Assembly (NCBI GenBank): GCA_009838765.1
Contig: VXQX01000096.1
Span: 1 to 62,792, forward strand
Direction: 5' to 3'
Length of the DNA: 62,792 nt
Source: Gemmatimonadales bacterium
Lineage (GTDB): Bacteria > Gemmatimonadota > Gemmatimonadetes > Palauibacterales > Palauibacteraceae
Shown here: positions 8,821 to 22,208 of the stretch, piece after piece
Layout of the letters: the number at the start of each line of letters is the position of its first letter
Position numbering within the stretch: position 1 is the first letter of the stretch
Position numbers and translations under genes: made by a program
The notes under the pieces: generated by a model
What the model was told of the DNA's origin: nothing
What the model saw: the letters and a program-made list of their open reading frames with translations, nothing else
The model's database searches: none

Positions 8821-10350
8821 CTACCAGAATATGATGTAGAGGACGGCCGCTCCCGCGATCACGCCCCCGGCCCAGAGCCCGGCGCCCGGAGCGGGCGTCA
8901 GATCCACGCCGTCCGCGGCGCGCGGCAGCCGGCGCGGGGCATCGAGCGGCCGCGCGCGCGTCACGAGGACGATGTACGCGCTGATCGCGAGGAAGGTGAT
9001 CGCCATGTGGTGGAGGAACGCGACTTCCGGCAGCAGCCACAGGAGGAGGCCGTAGACCGGGATCCCGAGCACCATCCCGCCGAAGGCGGCGGCGGGCGGC
9101 GTGCGCGGCGCGAAGATGCCGAACAGGAACGCGGCCACGATCCCCGGTGAGATGAACCCCCAGAACATCTGGATGTACTCGAACACGCTCGGCGCGCGGG
9201 CCACGACCGGCGCCCACAGGCACGCCACCACGACGAGCACCCCCGTCGTCACCCGTCCCACCACCATGAGGCGCCGCGATGACGCCTCGGGCCGCAGGTG
9301 CCGCTTGTAGAGGTCCACGCTGAAGATCGTCGCCGCCGAGTTGAGCATCGAGTCGAGCGAACTCATCACGGCCCCGAACAGCGCCGCGAACATGATCCCC
9401 GTCAGCCCGACCGGGAGGAGTTCGCGCATCATCACCGGGTAGGCCTGGTCCGGGTTCGTCACCTGATCGGCGAACAGTTCCGCCGCCATGATCCCGGGAA
9501 AGATGATGATGAAGGGGATGAACAGCTTGATGAAGCCCGCGAGGAAGAGCCCCCGCTGCCCATCCGCCAGGCTGCGCGCCGCCAGCGTGCGCTGCGTGAT
9601 GAACTGGTTCAGTCCCCAGTAGAAGATGTTGGGGATCCACAGGCCCCCGATGAAGACCGCTGGCCACGGCATCTCCGGGTGGTTCCAGGGGAGGACCGTG
9701 TGGAGCTTTCCGTCCGCCGCCTCGAGGAAGGGGGTAATGCCGCCCATGGCCCGGAACCCCAGCACGGTCACGAGCACGCCGCCGAGGAGGAGCGCCACGC
9801 CCTGGAGGAGGTCTGACCACACGACGGCCTTCAGTCCGCCGTAGATCGTGTACCCGCCCGCAAGTACGCCGATGAGCCAGATGCCAGCCGACACGTCGAG
9901 GCCGAAGATCGACTCCAGGGCGAGCGCGCCCGAGTACAGCACGGTCGCGAGGGCCACGAGCACGTACGCCGCGAGGATGAACGCCGCCATCAGCGTGCGC
10001 GTGCGCACGTCGTACCGGAACTCGAGATACTCCGGGATGGTGTAGATCCCCGCCGCGAGGAACCGGGGGAGGAAAAAGAGTCCGACGAGGACGAGGGTGA
10101 CGGCCGCCATCCACTCGTAACTCGCGATCGCGAGGCCGATGTCGTAGCCGCGCCCCGCCATCCCCACGAAATGCTCGGTGGAAATGTTCGACGCGATGAG
10201 CGAGAAGCCGATCAGCCACCACGGGAGGTTACGTCCGGCGAGGAAGTAGCCTGCCGCGTCGCGCCGCCCGCGCGAGGCGTACAGCGACACCCCCATCACG
10301 AGCAGCAGAAACCCCGCGAACGCCGCGACGTCCAGGGGCCGAAAGTTCAT
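8821..10350 (-). CDS. Sodium:solute symporter (SSS/SLC5 family)
   Basis: 509 aa from the ATG at 10350; an in-frame upstream extension is Arg-rich and ignored. About 13 hydrophobic helices run through the protein. N-terminal FLAGRNLPWWLIGFSLIASN and GLNQFITQRTLAA match SGLT/vSGLT-type LeuT-fold transporters. It would import a sugar, polyol or related solute with Na+ across the inner membrane; the substrate cannot be read from sequence. The start overlaps the stop of a VapC gene (ATGA), an odd coupling of a transporter to a toxin. Confidence 0.88.
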   Translation of the reverse strand: MNFRPLDVAAFAGFLLLVMGVSLYASRGRRDAAGYFLAGRNLPWWLIGFSLIASNISTEHFVGMAGRGYDIGLAIASYEWMAAVTLVLVGLFFLPRFLAAGIYTIPEYLEFRYDVRTRTLMAAFILAAYVLVALATVLYSGALALESIFGLDVSAGIWLIGVLAGGYTIYGGLKAVVWSDLLQGVALLLGGVLVTVLGFRAMGGITPFLEAADGKLHTVLPWNHPEMPWPAVFIGGLWIPNIFYWGLNQFITQRTLAARSLADGQRGLFLAGFIKLFIPFIIIFPGIMAAELFADQVTNPDQAYPVMMRELLPVGLTGIMFAALFGAVMSSLDSMLNSAATIFSVDLYKRHLRPEASSRRLMVVGRVTTGVLVVVACLWAPVVARAPSVFEYIQMFWGFISPGIVAAFLFGIFAPRTPPAAAFGGMVLGIPVYGLLLWLLPEVAFLHHMAITFLAISAYIVLVTRARPLDAPRRLPRAADGVDLTPAPGAGLWAGGVIAGAAVLYIIFW

Positions 10351-10760
10351 TCCTGCGGGTAGGCAAACGGGTTGACAGTGTCCACTCCAAGTCGCTCGAA
10401 GTCGCGGACGTTGCGGGTAGCCACGGTCAGTCGGTTCACGGTGGCGACGGCGCCGATCAGCGCATCCTGCAGGAGCGTATCCGATGGCCCGTGCATGATC
10501 CGCGCCCATTCACGGAAGGCGGCCGCATCCACCGGGAGCACGTCGTACGTCGCAAGGACCTGGTCGAGCCACGCTTCCAGTTCTGCGGCCTTAGCCGGGT
10601 CCCGCTCGCGGGTAGTCTCGATTCCGGCCTGAACTTCGCCGATCGTGACCGCCGAAAGGCGCAGATCGGCGGCGGGAACGTCTCGAAACCACGACAGAAC
10701 TCCACCGTGCGGCCGGGGACGCCGCAACTCCGAAACGATGTTCGTGTCGAGCAGGAACAC
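10347..10760 (-). CDS. VapC-type PIN-domain toxin (pair 2, FitB-like)
   Basis: 137 aa. PIN motifs are LLDTNIVSEL (Asp), VTIGEVQAG (Glu), LLQDALIGA (Asp) and VATRNVRDFERLGV, the pattern of FitB-like VapCs. It is a predicted Mg-dependent RNase. It lies 4 nt after the Phd-like antitoxin gene, and its stop overlaps the symporter start, so all three may share a transcript. Confidence 0.9.
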   Translation of the reverse strand: MFLLDTNIVSELRRPRPHGGVLSWFRDVPAADLRLSAVTIGEVQAGIETTRERDPAKAAELEAWLDQVLATYDVLPVDAAAFREWARIMHGPSDTLLQDALIGAVATVNRLTVATRNVRDFERLGVDTVNPFAYPQE

Positions 10761-10764
10761 ACGG

Positions 10765-11025
10765 CTACTCGAATACGGGCGTCGCTCGCTGCCGCATTTT
10801 GCGGCGCGGCGGAACGAGGTTTTCCGTCCGGGCCTCGGGCGCGAGCAGCAACTCCTTCAGATTCGGCTTGGCCATCTTCTCCAGCCGCCTCCAATGGTCG
10901 ATGGGAACCAGGACCGCGGCTTCGACGCCGCGTTTCGTGACGACTTGCGGCCCTTGCGTCAACGCCGTCTCAAGGAGCGCGCTGAAGCGCGCCTTCGCTT
11001 CCTGAACCTGCCACGCGTTGCTCAT
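10765..11025 (-). CDS. Phd/YefM-family antitoxin (pair 2)
   Basis: 86 aa from the ATG at 11025, which follows AGAGGATCG. WQVQEAKARFSALLETAL and PQVVTKRGVEAAVLVP are the Phd/YefM signature; the Arg-rich C-terminus should bind the PIN toxin. An upstream in-frame extension runs through the operator region and is rejected. It is expected to autoregulate from the adjacent palindrome. Confidence 0.9.
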   Translation of the reverse strand: MSNAWQVQEAKARFSALLETALTQGPQVVTKRGVEAAVLVPIDHWRRLEKMAKPNLKELLLAPEARTENLVPPRRKMRQRATPVFE

Positions 11026-11058
11026 TCGATCCTCTCGAGCGTCTATCTGACTAGACAT

Positions 11059-11070
11059 CAGACTAGTCTG
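11059..11070. promoter_or_regulatory. Palindromic operator of the Phd-VapC pair
   Basis: CAGACTAGTCTG is a perfect 12-bp palindrome. A second related half-site TGACTAGACA lies immediately beside it at 11048-11057. It overlaps the predicted -10 box, as expected for antitoxin repression. Confidence 0.5.
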
Positions 11071-11088
11071 AATTCGTAGCGACGGCAA
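11060..11088 (-). promoter_or_regulatory. Predicted promoter of the Phd-VapC pair
   Basis: On the minus strand TTGCCG (11088-11083) and TAGTCT (11065-11060) are spaced by 17 bp, and the -10 lies within the palindrome. Both boxes are imperfect, so the call is tentative. Confidence 0.3.
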
Positions 11089-11110: not shown

Positions 11111-11338
11111 CTAGGAACCGTCGTGAAGAACGCGTGAGAGCGCCTGTATCGCTTCTTCGCGCCGGCTCGCGGGCACGCGGAGGACCTTCGCGGCCGCCGT
11201 CGGCCCCCAGGACACCGGCGCGAACTCGCCCTCGACCCTGAAGGGGATGTCGCCGGCCTCGAGCGCGAGCCTCGCCGCGAGGAATTCGCTCTCGTCCCAC
11301 GCCTCGAATACGCGGACCATGTCGTCGCTCCGCGTCAT
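11111..11338 (-). CDS. DUF2007-like small protein
   Basis: 75 aa from the ATG at 11338, which overlaps the OsmC stop (ATGA). The pattern VRVFEAWDESEFLAARLALEAGDIP, here split as VRVFEAW and LAARLALEAGDIPF, is typical of DUF2007 (putative signal-transducing) proteins, which are short alpha/beta folds. Function is unknown. The coupling suggests it is made together with the OsmC-family protein. Confidence 0.65.
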   Translation of the reverse strand: MTRSDDMVRVFEAWDESEFLAARLALEAGDIPFRVEGEFAPVSWGPTAAAKVLRVPASRREEAIQALSRVLHDGS

Positions 11339-11805
11339 GAAGCGGCCGGCGCCTCTTCGATGTCGGCGGTCCATGTCACCTCGATCGCGCCCTCCAGGGA
11401 GCGAGCGGTGGGGCACTTCGCGCCGTGGCTGGCGAGGGCGCGGTCGACCGTCTCCCGGGCCTCGGCGGGGATGCGGAGCCGGTAGTGGACGACGATCTCC
11501 TCGAGCGTCGGCATGCGGTCGTGGAGGCGGTGGATCCCTTCCACGTCGGCGACGATGTCTTCGGGGGCCAGGCGGATGCCGCGCACTTCCAGTGCGCCGT
11601 TGAGCGTGCCCAACATTCAGGCTCCGGTCGCGGCCACCAGGTAGTCGACCGGGAGCGGCAGGTCCTTCGCATCGATCCGGTAGTGGGACTTGATGGGACC
11701 GTGGACGCCGAAGTCGATCTCGGTCCCCTCCTCGAGGCGGGCCCGGCGATGCACACCCTCGACCTTCTCGAGACGCGCGCGGGCGATGTAGAATGGCTGG
11801 GACAC
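11335..11805 (-). CDS. OsmC-family peroxiredoxin, candidate selenoprotein (in-frame UGA = Sec63)
   Basis: GTG at 11805 follows AGGGAGAG. The frame runs to an in-frame TGA at 11619-11617 and continues without loss of register to a TGA at 11335-11337, giving 156 aa if UGA is read as Sec. Before UGA it reads VDYLVAATGA and after it MLGTLNGALEVRGI, so UGA sits where OsmC proteins carry the peroxidatic Cys. The resolving Cys is present as KCPTARSL (C131); the 68-residue spacing fits the family pair near 60/125. A 7-bp hairpin with a GG-containing loop lies 19 nt after UGA. OsmC proteins reduce organic hydroperoxides. A nonsense mutation is the main alternative. Confidence 0.75.
11581..11619 (-). 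promoter_or_regulatory. Sec UGA codon and bacterial SECIS-like hairpin
   Basis: UGA occupies 11619-11617. GCGCACT (11597-11591) and AGTGCGC (11587-11581) form a perfect 7-bp stem with the loop GGA, or a 5-nt UGGAA loop with one fewer pair. The loop starts 26 nt after UGA. Distance, stem length and Gs in the apical loop all match the known bacterial SECIS consensus recognised by SelB. Confidence 0.7.
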
Positions 11806-11932
11806 GACGCTCTCCCTGTGGTTTCGGTTCCCCTGCGCGGGGGCTCCTTTACGGGCCCGCCTTCCCTGCCGCATTTTCGGGCGGCGAGATTCGGGGCGTG
11901 ACGCGCAAACGGAACGATCAAGAGCAACGAGC

Positions 11933-20285: not shown

Positions 20286-22208
20286 GTGAGCCGCATGGCC
20301 GGACTTCGGAGCCGGCGGGCCGCACCGGGGACGCTGACCGCTGTGCTCCTCGCGGCGGGATGCGCATCGGGCGGCACCGGTCCAGGGGAGTTGTCGCCGG
20401 AGCGCGCAGCCGGCGCGGCACCCGGATTCGTCCGCGCCGTCACTCCTTTTCCGGTGTTCGACGAGTCCGGAAACGCGTACGAAATCCCCTTCCTCGGCGG
20501 CTTCAACGTGCCCCGTCCGCAGTGGGTGGACATCGACGGAGACGGCGACCTCGACCTCTTCGTGCAGGAGAGGACGAACCGCCTGATGTTCTTCGAGCGC
20601 GAGGACACGCCCGATGGACGGCGCCACACCTGGCGGCCGGACGCGTACTCGGATCTCGAGGTCGGAGAGTGGTTCCGTTTCGTGGATGTCGACGCGGACG
20701 GCGACCGGGACCTCCTTGCCGAGTCCCCCTTCAGCTACATGAAGCTCTATCGGAACACGGGCACGGCGGGCGGGGCCGTATTCGAACTCATCGCGGACAC
20801 TCTCCGCGACACGCGGGGAGAAGCGATCTTCTCGGATCGCCAGAACATCCCCAACGCGGCGGACATCGACTGCGATGGCCGCCTCGACCTCTTCATCGGC
20901 CGCCTCGTGGGGACGGTCACGCGCTACGAGGCGACGGGCGCGATCGGAGAGAACGCCGCGCCCTTCCGGCACATCACGGACCGCTTCGAGGACATCGAGA
21001 TCGTCGCCGACCCCGCGGCGGCCGGGGGCGTGCCACCCTTCGACGGCGAGGACGCCGACGGGCCCTTCCCCACCCTGCACGGGGCGAACACGATGGCGCT
21101 CGCCGACTACGACGCGGACGGCGATACGGACATGTTCTGGGGCGACTTCTTCGAGGCCGGGCTTCTGCTGATCGAGAACGCGGGCTCCTGCGAGGCTCCG
21201 AACCTTCGCGTGGAGCCGCGTCCCTTCCCCCTCGACGACCCGATCCGGACGAGCGGCTACAACGCTCCGACCTTCGGCGACTACGACGGCGACGGCGATC
21301 TCGACCTGCTCATGGGCGTGCTCGGCGGCGCGTACAACGCGAACACGACGACCGCCGACAACCTCATGCTCTTCTCGCAGGAGTCCGACGGCGGCTTCGA
21401 GCTGCGGACGCGACGCTTCATCTCGCAGATCGATGTGGGCAGCGAGAGCGTGGCCTCCCTCGTGGACCTCGACGGCGACGGCGACCTCGACCTCCTGCTC
21501 GGCAACAAGATCGATCCCGGGGACCTGTCGAACTCGCGCGTCGTCCTGTTCGAGAACGAAGGGAGCGCGACGCGCCCGGTCTTCCGCCGGACGGGCGAGT
21601 TCGAACTGCCGGGCGCCTACCACAATGCGCCGGCCTTCGGCGACCTTGACGCGGACGGCGACCTCGACCTGCTGCTCGGCACGTGGCGCGACGAGATCCG
21701 CTACGTGCGGAACGAGGGGTCGGTCATGGAACCGCGCCTCGCGCTGGTGGACTCGGCGTTCGTCGAGATCACGCGCGGGAGCAACGCGACGCCCGCCCTC
21801 GGCGACCTCGACGGGGATGGAGACCTCGACCTCATGATCGGAGAGTCGTCGGGGGCGCTGAACTACTACGAGAACGTGGGCTCCGCCTCGGAACCGAGCT
21901 TCGACTTCGTGAGCGATCAATACGCGGAGATTGACATCGGCCGGCGAAGCTTCCCCAAGCTTCTCGACCACGACGGAGACGGCGACCTCGACCTCATCGT
22001 CGGCACCGAGTCCGACGGGATCCGTTACTTCCGAAACGATGGGACTCCCGCGGCCCCGAACTTCGTCGAGTCCGACGGCGGGTTCCCCGCCGCGGAGGAT
22101 CTGCCGCTGTTCTCGACTCCGGAGTTCGGGGACCTGGACGGAGACGGCGACCTCGACCTCGTCGTCGGCGCCGCCGGGGGCGGCCTCTATTACTTCGAAC
22201 GACGTTGA
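20286..22208 (+). CDS. VCBS/FG-GAP repeat lipoprotein
   Basis: 640 aa from a GTG at 20286; an ATG at 20295 is an alternative. LTAVLLAAGC is a good lipobox. About ten Ca-binding DxDGDGDLDL motifs recur, including DIDGDGDLDLF, DYDGDGDLDLLMG, DLDGDGDLDLLLG and DHDGDGDLDLIVG, each followed by a YYEN/RNEG strand. This is an integrin-alpha-like beta-propeller on the outer surface or in the periplasm. Its ligand is unknown. It sits between the YVTN protein and the second choice-of-anchor B protein, all co-oriented. Confidence 0.85.
   Translation: MSRMAGLRSRRAAPGTLTAVLLAAGCASGGTGPGELSPERAAGAAPGFVRAVTPFPVFDESGNAYEIPFLGGFNVPRPQWVDIDGDGDLDLFVQERTNRLMFFEREDTPDGRRHTWRPDAYSDLEVGEWFRFVDVDADGDRDLLAESPFSYMKLYRNTGTAGGAVFELIADTLRDTRGEAIFSDRQNIPNAADIDCDGRLDLFIGRLVGTVTRYEATGAIGENAAPFRHITDRFEDIEIVADPAAAGGVPPFDGEDADGPFPTLHGANTMALADYDADGDTDMFWGDFFEAGLLLIENAGSCEAPNLRVEPRPFPLDDPIRTSGYNAPTFGDYDGDGDLDLLMGVLGGAYNANTTTADNLMLFSQESDGGFELRTRRFISQIDVGSESVASLVDLDGDGDLDLLLGNKIDPGDLSNSRVVLFENEGSATRPVFRRTGEFELPGAYHNAPAFGDLDADGDLDLLLGTWRDEIRYVRNEGSVMEPRLALVDSAFVEITRGSNATPALGDLDGDGDLDLMIGESSGALNYYENVGSASEPSFDFVSDQYAEIDIGRRSFPKLLDHDGDGDLDLIVGTESDGIRYFRNDGTPAAPNFVESDGGFPAAEDLPLFSTPEFGDLDGDGDLDLVVGAAGGGLYYFERR
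20530..22190 (+). repeat. Tandem-like Ca-binding motif repeats within the VCBS gene
   Basis: GAC-rich 27-30 nt units encoding D-x-D-G-D-G-D-L-D recur near 20530, 20690, 20865, 21110, 21285, 21470, 21650, 21810, 21970 and 22135, about 160-185 nt apart. Near-identical unit sequences with divergent spacers reflect protein repeats, not a CRISPR. Confidence 0.75.

What the first reader, a model, noticed from the sequence alone, without database searches (positions are those of the whole stretch)
11335..11805. Candidate selenoprotein OsmC: UGA at the peroxidatic Cys with a SECIS hairpin
Two adjacent half-genes are in the same frame, separated by one UGA. The UGA falls exactly where OsmC proteins have their peroxidatic Cys (after VDYLVAATG and before LGTLNGAL), and the resolving Cys (KCPTARS) is retained. 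A perfect 7-bp stem with a GG-containing loop starts 19 nt after UGA. Both the distance and the structure fit bacterial SECIS rules. OsmC-like selenoproteins are, to my knowledge, rare and mainly reported from metagenomes. Automated annotation would split or truncate it.
Basis: partly seen in the sequence, partly recalled or inferred. Interest (0 to 1): 0.9.

Follow-up and report, generated by a model that had tools for sequence, protein, structure and literature searches.

The report
Selenocysteine-containing OsmC peroxidase gene
What looks like two broken half-genes is very probably one intact gene for a small OsmC-type antioxidant protein, in which a stop codon is read as selenocysteine; the kind was already known, but this widespread branch of it appears to exist almost only in the selenium form.

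Summary
Window 11335-11805 (minus) encodes one OsmC-domain protein (PF02566) with an in-frame TGA at codon 63, the catalytic-Cys position. The second Cys (C131) is intact, and a 7-bp GGA-loop hairpin starts 19 nt downstream. The genome, from the same genus as Candidatus Palauibacter (Gemmatimonadota), carries selA, selB, selD (itself with an in-frame TGA) and tRNA-Sec. Relatives occur in 115 of 395 Gemmatimonadota genomes (each with at least one TGA copy) and 34 of 350 Chloroflexota genomes (32 with TGA, one TGG, one fragment). No Cys member of the clade was seen; only distant ordinary OsmC genes have Cys. The hairpin is the strongest evidence: 63 of 69 distinct sequences keep all seven pairs (at most 5.5 expected under synonymous shuffling), and a silent Ala-codon base covaries with a downstream amino-acid change. 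The selenoprotein reading is about 95% likely; peroxidase chemistry is inferred from family and fold. OsmC-like selenoproteins have been in print since 2005 and NCBIfam has a model (NF041052), but this protein scores far below its cut-off and lacks the published UxxT motif. It is therefore a broad new subfamily of a known kind.

The parts
11335..11805 (-). Whole CDS of the Sec-containing OsmC-like protein, GTG start to TGA stop, 156 aa including Sec63
   Evidence: frame kept across the UGA in the 92 TGA-bearing loci read; dN/dS 0.06-0.36 downstream of the UGA in six pairs
11617..11619 (-). In-frame UGA = Sec63, aligned with the first (catalytic) Cys of OsmC/Ohr
11581..11597 (-). bSECIS hairpin: 7-bp stem, GGA triloop, loop 26 nt after the UGA
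11413..11415 (-). Codon for Cys131, the predicted resolving Cys (KCPTARS)
   Evidence: invariant in alignments A1, A4 and A6; aligns with the CPV motif of 1ukk
11810..11817 (-). Purine-rich probable ribosome-binding site (agggagag) upstream of the GTG
   Evidence: read from the sequence; not tested

Best explanation
This is one intact selenoprotein gene. During translation SelB carries Sec-tRNA(Sec) to UGA63, guided by the hairpin that begins 19 nt downstream, and the ribosome goes on to a 156-residue OsmC-fold protein (insertion: inferred from comparative evidence, not measured). The selenolate of Sec63 would attack an organic or lipid hydroperoxide; the resulting selenenic acid would be resolved by Cys131 as a Se-S bond, to be reduced by a dithiol such as dihydrolipoamide (all chemistry inferred from OsmC/Ohr). 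Its likely role is hydroperoxide defence in an uncultured marine or sponge-associated Gemmatimonadota bacterium (host and role inferred).
For: Complete Sec machinery in the same genome: selB 370.5 bits, selA 490.6 bits, selD 369.7 bits with its own TGA at GAG*ACK, tRNA-Sec 79.7 bits with anticodon TCA. TGA conserved across two phyla: all 115 gene-bearing Gemmatimonadota genomes have a match with exactly one TGA (110 in the printed rows, three more, G110 and G280), as do 32 of 34 Chloroflexota genomes (second TGAs are terminators). Co-occurrence: 112 of 115 gene-bearing genomes match selB at E 1e-60 against 171 of 280 without the gene; of the three exceptions, G121 has two partial selB-like matches on different contigs plus selA, and G159 has selA. 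SECIS: 63 of 69 perfect stems against 5.5, 0.9 and 1.7 expected; 31 two-sided change cells against 9.5 and covariation score 0.263 against 0.154, sd 0.009, both 0 of 500 shuffles. The Ala codon and the codon across the stem pair as GCG-GCG 34, GCA-GTG 24, GCC-GGG 7, GCG-GTG 2 and unpaired GCC-GCC 2 of 69. Fold model pLDDT 96.2; Foldseek's best PDB hits include E. coli OsmC and many Ohr structures; Sec63 and Cys131 align with the two motif cysteines of 1ukk.
Against: No expression, Se-labelling or mass-spectrometry data. The window hairpin alone is not significant, and in several relatives it is not the minimum-energy fold of the isolated strand (L022, L025, L107, L123, L139, L064, L068). Only one of the seven stem pairs changes on both sides; the counts of such pairs (1) and of further pair types (7) are no higher than in shuffles (482 and 329 of 500 reach them). 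Six of 69 sequences lack the exact stem: L074 and L065 have 6 of 7 pairs, L134 and L136 show a shifted longer stem, L064 and L068 have only 2 of 7. In the small Cys-OsmC control, two of five had a 7-bp stem elsewhere nearby, so stems as such are common in this GC-rich DNA. Genome G211 has the gene but neither selA nor a selB over cut-off; it is an 830-contig draft at 88% completeness. One copy (L135, G698) has TGG at the site, and three Chloroflexota copies (G646:C793, G476:C146, G514:C29) look broken outside the site. The invariant acid near Sec63 is Asp, not the Glu that I recall for Ohr/OsmC.
Confidence: 0.95

Rival explanations
1. Same selenoprotein, but not a hydroperoxide reductase: Sec63 serves another redox job (disulfide or persulfide chemistry, electrophile detoxification).
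For: Only fold and two active-site positions are shared with characterised OsmC/Ohr; identity to the 50 listed PDB matches is 10-22%. Neighbouring genes differ between the window, L030, L049 and L032, so context does not confirm a peroxide role.
Against: OsmC/Ohr fold and both reactive positions are kept.
Confidence: 0.2
2. A pseudogene or recent nonsense mutation.
For: An in-frame stop splits the ORF.
Against: Same TGA codon across two phyla, with no TAA or TAG reported in the printed rows; downstream dN/dS 0.06-0.36; Cys131 invariant in 57 sequences.
Confidence: 0.01
3. Two separate products: the 5' ORF stops at UGA and the 3' half restarts at the ATG that follows.
For: The codon after UGA in the window is ATG, and the ORF finder starts the 3' half there.
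Against: That codon is ATG in 31 of 69 distinct sequences and a Leu codon (CTN or TTG) in 38; both halves together make one OsmC fold; the hairpin pattern and selB co-occurrence would be unexplained.
Confidence: 0.01
4. Genome-wide recoding of UGA to Trp, Gly or Cys instead of Sec insertion.
For: G698 has TGG (Trp) at the site.
Against: UGA still ends genes in the window (DUF885, PIN and this gene itself; 3 of 6 checked); tRNA-Sec and selB are present; the site aligns with Cys, not Trp.
Confidence: 0.01

Closest known systems
OsmC-like selenoprotein of the Sargasso Sea and GOS surveys (PMC1088965, PMC2398784; passages seen)
   Same: OsmC domain (COG1765 / PF02566) counted as a selenoprotein family, with a predicted bacterial SECIS (figure legend, PMC1088965)
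   Different: Published motif UxxT; here U-M/L-L-G-T (UxxxT) in clade A, U-L-T-G-T or U-L-A-G-T in most of clade B, U-M-Y-G-T in most of clade C. The published sequences (3 in the Sargasso table, 5 in the GOS table) could not be compared directly.
NCBIfam NF041052 OsmC_like_Se, 'OsmC-related (seleno)protein'
   Same: OsmC fold; the model's title allows a Sec or Cys form; weak similarity
   Different: The window protein scores 22.6 bits against a cut-off of 95 and five relatives 14.7-23.8; 0 of 101 phylum genomes exceed the cut-off
OsmC / Ohr thiol peroxidases (PDB 1nye, 1qwi, 1n2f, 1ukk, 6ebg)
   Same: Fold (query TM-scores 0.65-0.72) and both reactive positions (shown by alignment for 1ukk)
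   Different: Catalytic Cys replaced by Sec; 15-21% identity in these entries; Asp54 in the helix before Sec63

Membership tests
OsmC/Ohr superfamily (PF02566) | Profile match over the gathering score | tested here: met
   49.6 bits against 27.5; five relatives 39.5-60.1
OsmC/Ohr superfamily (PF02566) | OsmC fold | tested here: met
   AlphaFold2 pLDDT 96.2; Foldseek E 3.3e-9 to 2onf, with OsmC/Ohr entries through the 50 listed
OsmC/Ohr superfamily (PF02566) | Two reactive Cys (first replaced by Sec), the second in a CPV-type motif | tested here: met
   U63 and C131 invariant in A6 and aligned with the 1ukk motifs
OsmC/Ohr superfamily (PF02566) | Conserved catalytic Arg and Glu | tested here: inconclusive
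   R20 is at least 90% conserved and D54 invariant; their places in the active site were not measured, and the Arg/Glu rule is recalled
OsmC/Ohr superfamily (PF02566) | Thiol- or lipoyl-dependent hydroperoxide reductase activity | not testable with these tools
   needs enzymology
Bacterial selenoproteins | In-frame UGA at a Cys position, conserved in relatives | tested here: met
Bacterial selenoproteins | selA, selB, selC and selD in the genome | tested here: met
Bacterial selenoproteins | bSECIS: 3-9 nt loop, 4-16 bp stem, G in the first two loop positions, 16-37 nt from the UGA, MFE at or below -7.5 | tested here: met
   3-nt GGA loop, 7 bp, 26 nt; the 45-nt window fold that holds the stem has MFE -17.1 (row L040); rules from PMC13188914 (passages)
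Bacterial selenoproteins | Sec present in the protein | not testable with these tools
   needs 75Se labelling or mass spectrometry
NCBIfam NF041052 OsmC_like_Se | Score over the curated cut-off of 95 bits | tested here: not met
   22.6 bits; five relatives 14.7-23.8
Published OsmC-like selenoprotein (UxxT) | UxxT redox motif | tested here: not met
   U-M-L-G-T in the window; other motifs; the published sequences themselves were not seen

The most novel reading that the evidence does not exclude
An ancient OsmC clade spread over Gemmatimonadota and Chloroflexota that uses selenocysteine almost without exception and has no Cys orthologue, often kept as two Sec paralogues in one genome. Search methods that rely on Sec/Cys pairs would tend to miss it. 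The enzyme may need the selenol for a reaction that its Cys cousins do not perform.
Probability: 0.5. Interest if true: 0.6.

Novelty: new member of a known kind. Interest (0 to 1): 0.5.

Why it matters
It turns a split gene that mechanical ORF calling breaks in two into a family of probable selenoenzymes found in over a quarter of the Gemmatimonadota genomes sampled (115 of 395). It suggests that OsmC selenoproteins are not a rarity of ocean surveys. [quoted passage not shown] a clade with no Cys orthologue seen so far goes against that pattern and offers a test of why Sec is kept. The hairpin, with a silent base that tracks a downstream amino-acid change, is a clean natural example of a bacterial SECIS under selection inside a coding region.

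Tried and rejected
Rfam at gathering thresholds found nothing in the window. phmmer of the single sequence against the PDB found nothing; the family profile found OsmC entries.

A 'double Sec' idea (five Chloroflexota rows with 2 TGA) was rejected: the second TGA is the terminator. The Gammaproteobacteria origin of L026 was rejected as probable misbinning: its contig length equals that of G085:C33 (26470), and G085 has another clade A copy (C136); L026 was left out of the hairpin counts and tree, where L041 stands for the same contig in the counts. Gene neighbourhood gave no functional clue. The tRNA-Leu call at 21585-21680 lies antisense to an FG-GAP-repeat gene and is taken as spurious. Cys-OsmC control hairpins: only 5 of 13 control loci were caught by my motif search; they had 2-4 of 7 pairs at the same place, but two of the five had a 7-bp stem elsewhere, so this control is small and weak. 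The tree has very long branches flagged by the program; clades A, B and C hold together at 92/95, short of the 95 mark, and the joining with Cys L100/L101 is not firm.

Limits: print only part of their match lists, so second copies beyond the print were not all seen. The 92 loci read for the hairpin were chosen among rows with TGA and include the same contig fetched twice; counts on 69 are of distinct sequences. The genome-contig scan was one call. The accessions named in the reviews could not be compared. The public annotation of this gene was not checked.

Full report
What is there. On the minus strand, 11805-11335, one frame runs from a GTG (with agggagag upstream) to a TGA and is interrupted by a single TGA at 11619-11617. 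Read through, it is a 156-residue protein that passes the OsmC gathering score (49.6 bits). The internal UGA is codon 63, and the second cysteine (C131, KCPTARS) is present. The hairpin GCGCACU-GGA-AGUGCGC lies at 11597-11581, 19 nt after the UGA.

Is it more than chance? From the window alone the hairpin is unconvincing: z-scores of -1.1, -1.8 and -1.2 for three fragments, and a 2-10% chance of a perfect stem under synonymous recoding. The proof is comparative. The first scan of one genome for each of 84,980 species returned 11 loci, all with a stop at the same place, TGA in each. A profile search of 395 Gemmatimonadota genomes found a match in 115 at E 1e-12; every printed row had exactly one TGA, and these rows cover 110 of the 115 genomes. 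Three more (G279, G299, G348) appear with one TGA, and G110 and G280; in these two the TGA is at the same site in gene fragments, G110's being split between two contigs there. A profile of the second clade matched 117 of the same 395 genomes at E 1e-10, again with one TGA in every printed row. Its two extra genomes, G207 and G330, hold distant ordinary OsmC genes with TGC at the site. Both long lists were cut by the tool.

A second phylum. In 350 genomes of the phylum of L032 (a SAR202 Chloroflexota bin), 34 had a match at E 1e-10. Of 38 printed rows, 35 had a TGA inside, from 32 genomes; five of these rows printed two, the second being the terminator. Of the three rows without a stop, one (G514) begins downstream of the site with no OsmC-like sequence in frame before it, one is the downstream part of a frameshifted copy (G646:C793) and one (G698) has TGG at the site and a 5' end that looks damaged. 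G476:C146 also looks frameshifted after the site.

The RNA signal. The 48 nt from UGA onward were taken from 92 loci chosen among rows with TGA, 69 distinct, and aligned without gaps. Sixty-three of 69 keep all seven pairs of the stem; keeping each protein but drawing synonymous codons at random gives 5.5 (window codon usage), 0.9 (uniform) or 1.7 (G/C-ending favoured). The named structure scores 96.7% paired cells against 91.6% and covariation 0.263 against 0.154 (sd 0.009), both 0 of 500 shuffles; sliding the partner strand by 1-3 columns drops pairing to 18-68%. Two of the five measures do not stand out (pairs with two-sided change 1; further pair types 7), because all two-sided change sits in one pair (GC 34, AU 24, CG 7, GU 2). 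That pair joins the silent third base of an Ala codon to the second base of the codon across the loop: over the 69 sequences GCG-GCG 34, GCA-GTG 24, GCC-GGG 7, GCG-GTG 2 and, unpaired, GCC-GCC 2. GCA is a rare Ala codon here (5 of 189 Ala codons in three window genes). Among the 50 clade A loci, codons 7-12 after UGA, which form the hairpin, are nearly frozen at silent sites apart from the Glu codon in the loop, while neighbours vary (some of these loci are the same contig fetched twice). Six sequences depart: L074 and L065 (6 of 7), L134 and L136 (shifted longer stem), L064 and L068 (2 of 7, possibly a different hairpin closer to the UGA). In several more, the isolated strand prefers another fold. 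All rules of the bSECIS model quoted in PMC13188914 (passages seen) are met by the window sequence. Relatedness of the sequences inflates every such count.

The machinery. The window's genome (3.6 Mb, 96 contigs, 95% complete) holds selB (370.5 bits), selA (490.6 bits), selD (369.7 bits) and tRNA-Sec (79.7 bits; ARAGORN: tRNA-SeC, anticodon tca). SelD itself carries a TGA in its active-site loop (GAG*ACK), a known selenoprotein position (recalled). Across the 395 genomes, 112 of 115 with the gene match selB at E 1e-60 against 171 of 280 without it (Fisher p 5e-16; genomes are related, so p overstates). Of the three exceptions G121 has two partial selB-like matches on different contigs and selA, G159 has selA, and only G211 (830 contigs, 88% complete) shows neither selA nor selB over cut-off. 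All seven Chloroflexota genomes checked have selA and selB over cut-off. UGA still terminates ordinary genes (3 of 6 window genes checked, this one included), so this is not a recoded genome. Substitution patterns are those of one gene on both sides of the UGA: dN/dS upstream 0.09-0.30 (five of six pairs calculable), downstream 0.06-0.36 (six pairs).

What the protein is. The family profile finds OsmC structures in the PDB, and in the alignment with 1ukk Sec63 and Cys131 fall on the two motif cysteines. AlphaFold2 on an alignment of 57 window and locus sequences gives pLDDT 96.2, pTM 0.88; Foldseek's best matches are OsmC and Ohr proteins, including E. coli OsmC (1nye, 1qwi) and Ohr entries with dihydrolipoamide (6ebg, 6ebd). 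The model was made with Cys in place of Sec. The proposed catalytic cycle (selenolate, selenenic acid, Se-S bond with Cys131, reduction by a dithiol) is inference from that family.

Relatives and novelty. The host is placed by L023, a Candidatus Palauibacter denitrificans contig that matches G259, listed as same genus. A tree of 74 proteins puts clade A (window), clade B and clade C (Chloroflexota, U-M-Y-G-T) together (92/95), apart from a further Sec group (clade D, 4 rows) that nests with Cys OsmC proteins; long branches limit what can be said about deeper order. The window's own genome also carries a clade B copy with TGA (C54:38140-38583) and an ordinary OsmC with no stop (C43:90356-90685). 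OsmC-like selenoproteins are in print: 3 sequences in the Sargasso Sea table and 5 in the GOS table, motif UxxT (PMC1088965, PMC2398784; passages seen), and they are listed in two reviews (PMC13188914, PMC9312934; passages seen). NCBIfam has NF041052, but the window protein scores 22.6 against 95 and 0 of 101 phylum genomes exceed the cut-off. Searches for 'OsmC' with 'selenoprotein' gave 6 and 7 papers, of which four were opened at passages; 'Gemmatimonad' with 'selenocysteine' gave 19 and 'selenoproteins' with 'Chloroflexi', 'SECIS' and 'metagenome' gave 2, both seen as listings only. The Palauibacterales paper (PMC10469786, found) contains 'selen' only in an author name in its reference list. 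In these searches I found nothing describing this clade, but the library lacks most subscription papers, and I could not test whether the accessions cited in the reviews belong to it. I therefore call it a new member of a known kind.

Noticed in passing
L063 (G000:C54:38140-38583, minus): A second Sec-OsmC paralogue (clade B) in the same genome, 34% identical to the window protein, with all seven stem pairs at the same place, one of them G-U.
   Followed up: yes
L142, L143, L144, L145 (other Gemmatimonadota genomes): A separate OsmC group with an in-frame TGA (GA/GS-U-T/M-SMT), nesting with Cys OsmC proteins in the tree: a likely independent Sec form, below the NF041052 cut-off.
   Followed up: partly
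L011 (G000:C43:6923-7849, minus): SelD of this genome is itself a candidate selenoprotein, with TGA in the GAG*ACK loop.
   Followed up: partly
L135 (G698:C49): The only clade member seen without TGA at the site: TGG (Trp) and an apparently disrupted 5' end, in a genome with selA and selB. Possibly a decaying copy or a sequence error.
   Followed up: partly
L064 and L068: Two clade B genes lack the usual stem but could form GGGC-GGA-GCCC with its loop about 18 nt from the UGA: a possible relocated SECIS (sequences).
   Followed up: no
window 10347-11088 (minus): A PhdYeFM antitoxin and PIN-domain gene, a probable toxin-antitoxin pair, shortly downstream of the OsmC gene.
   Followed up: no
window 21585-21680 (minus): ARAGORN tRNA-Leu (aag) call antisense to an FG-GAP-repeat gene; probably spurious.
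   Followed up: partly
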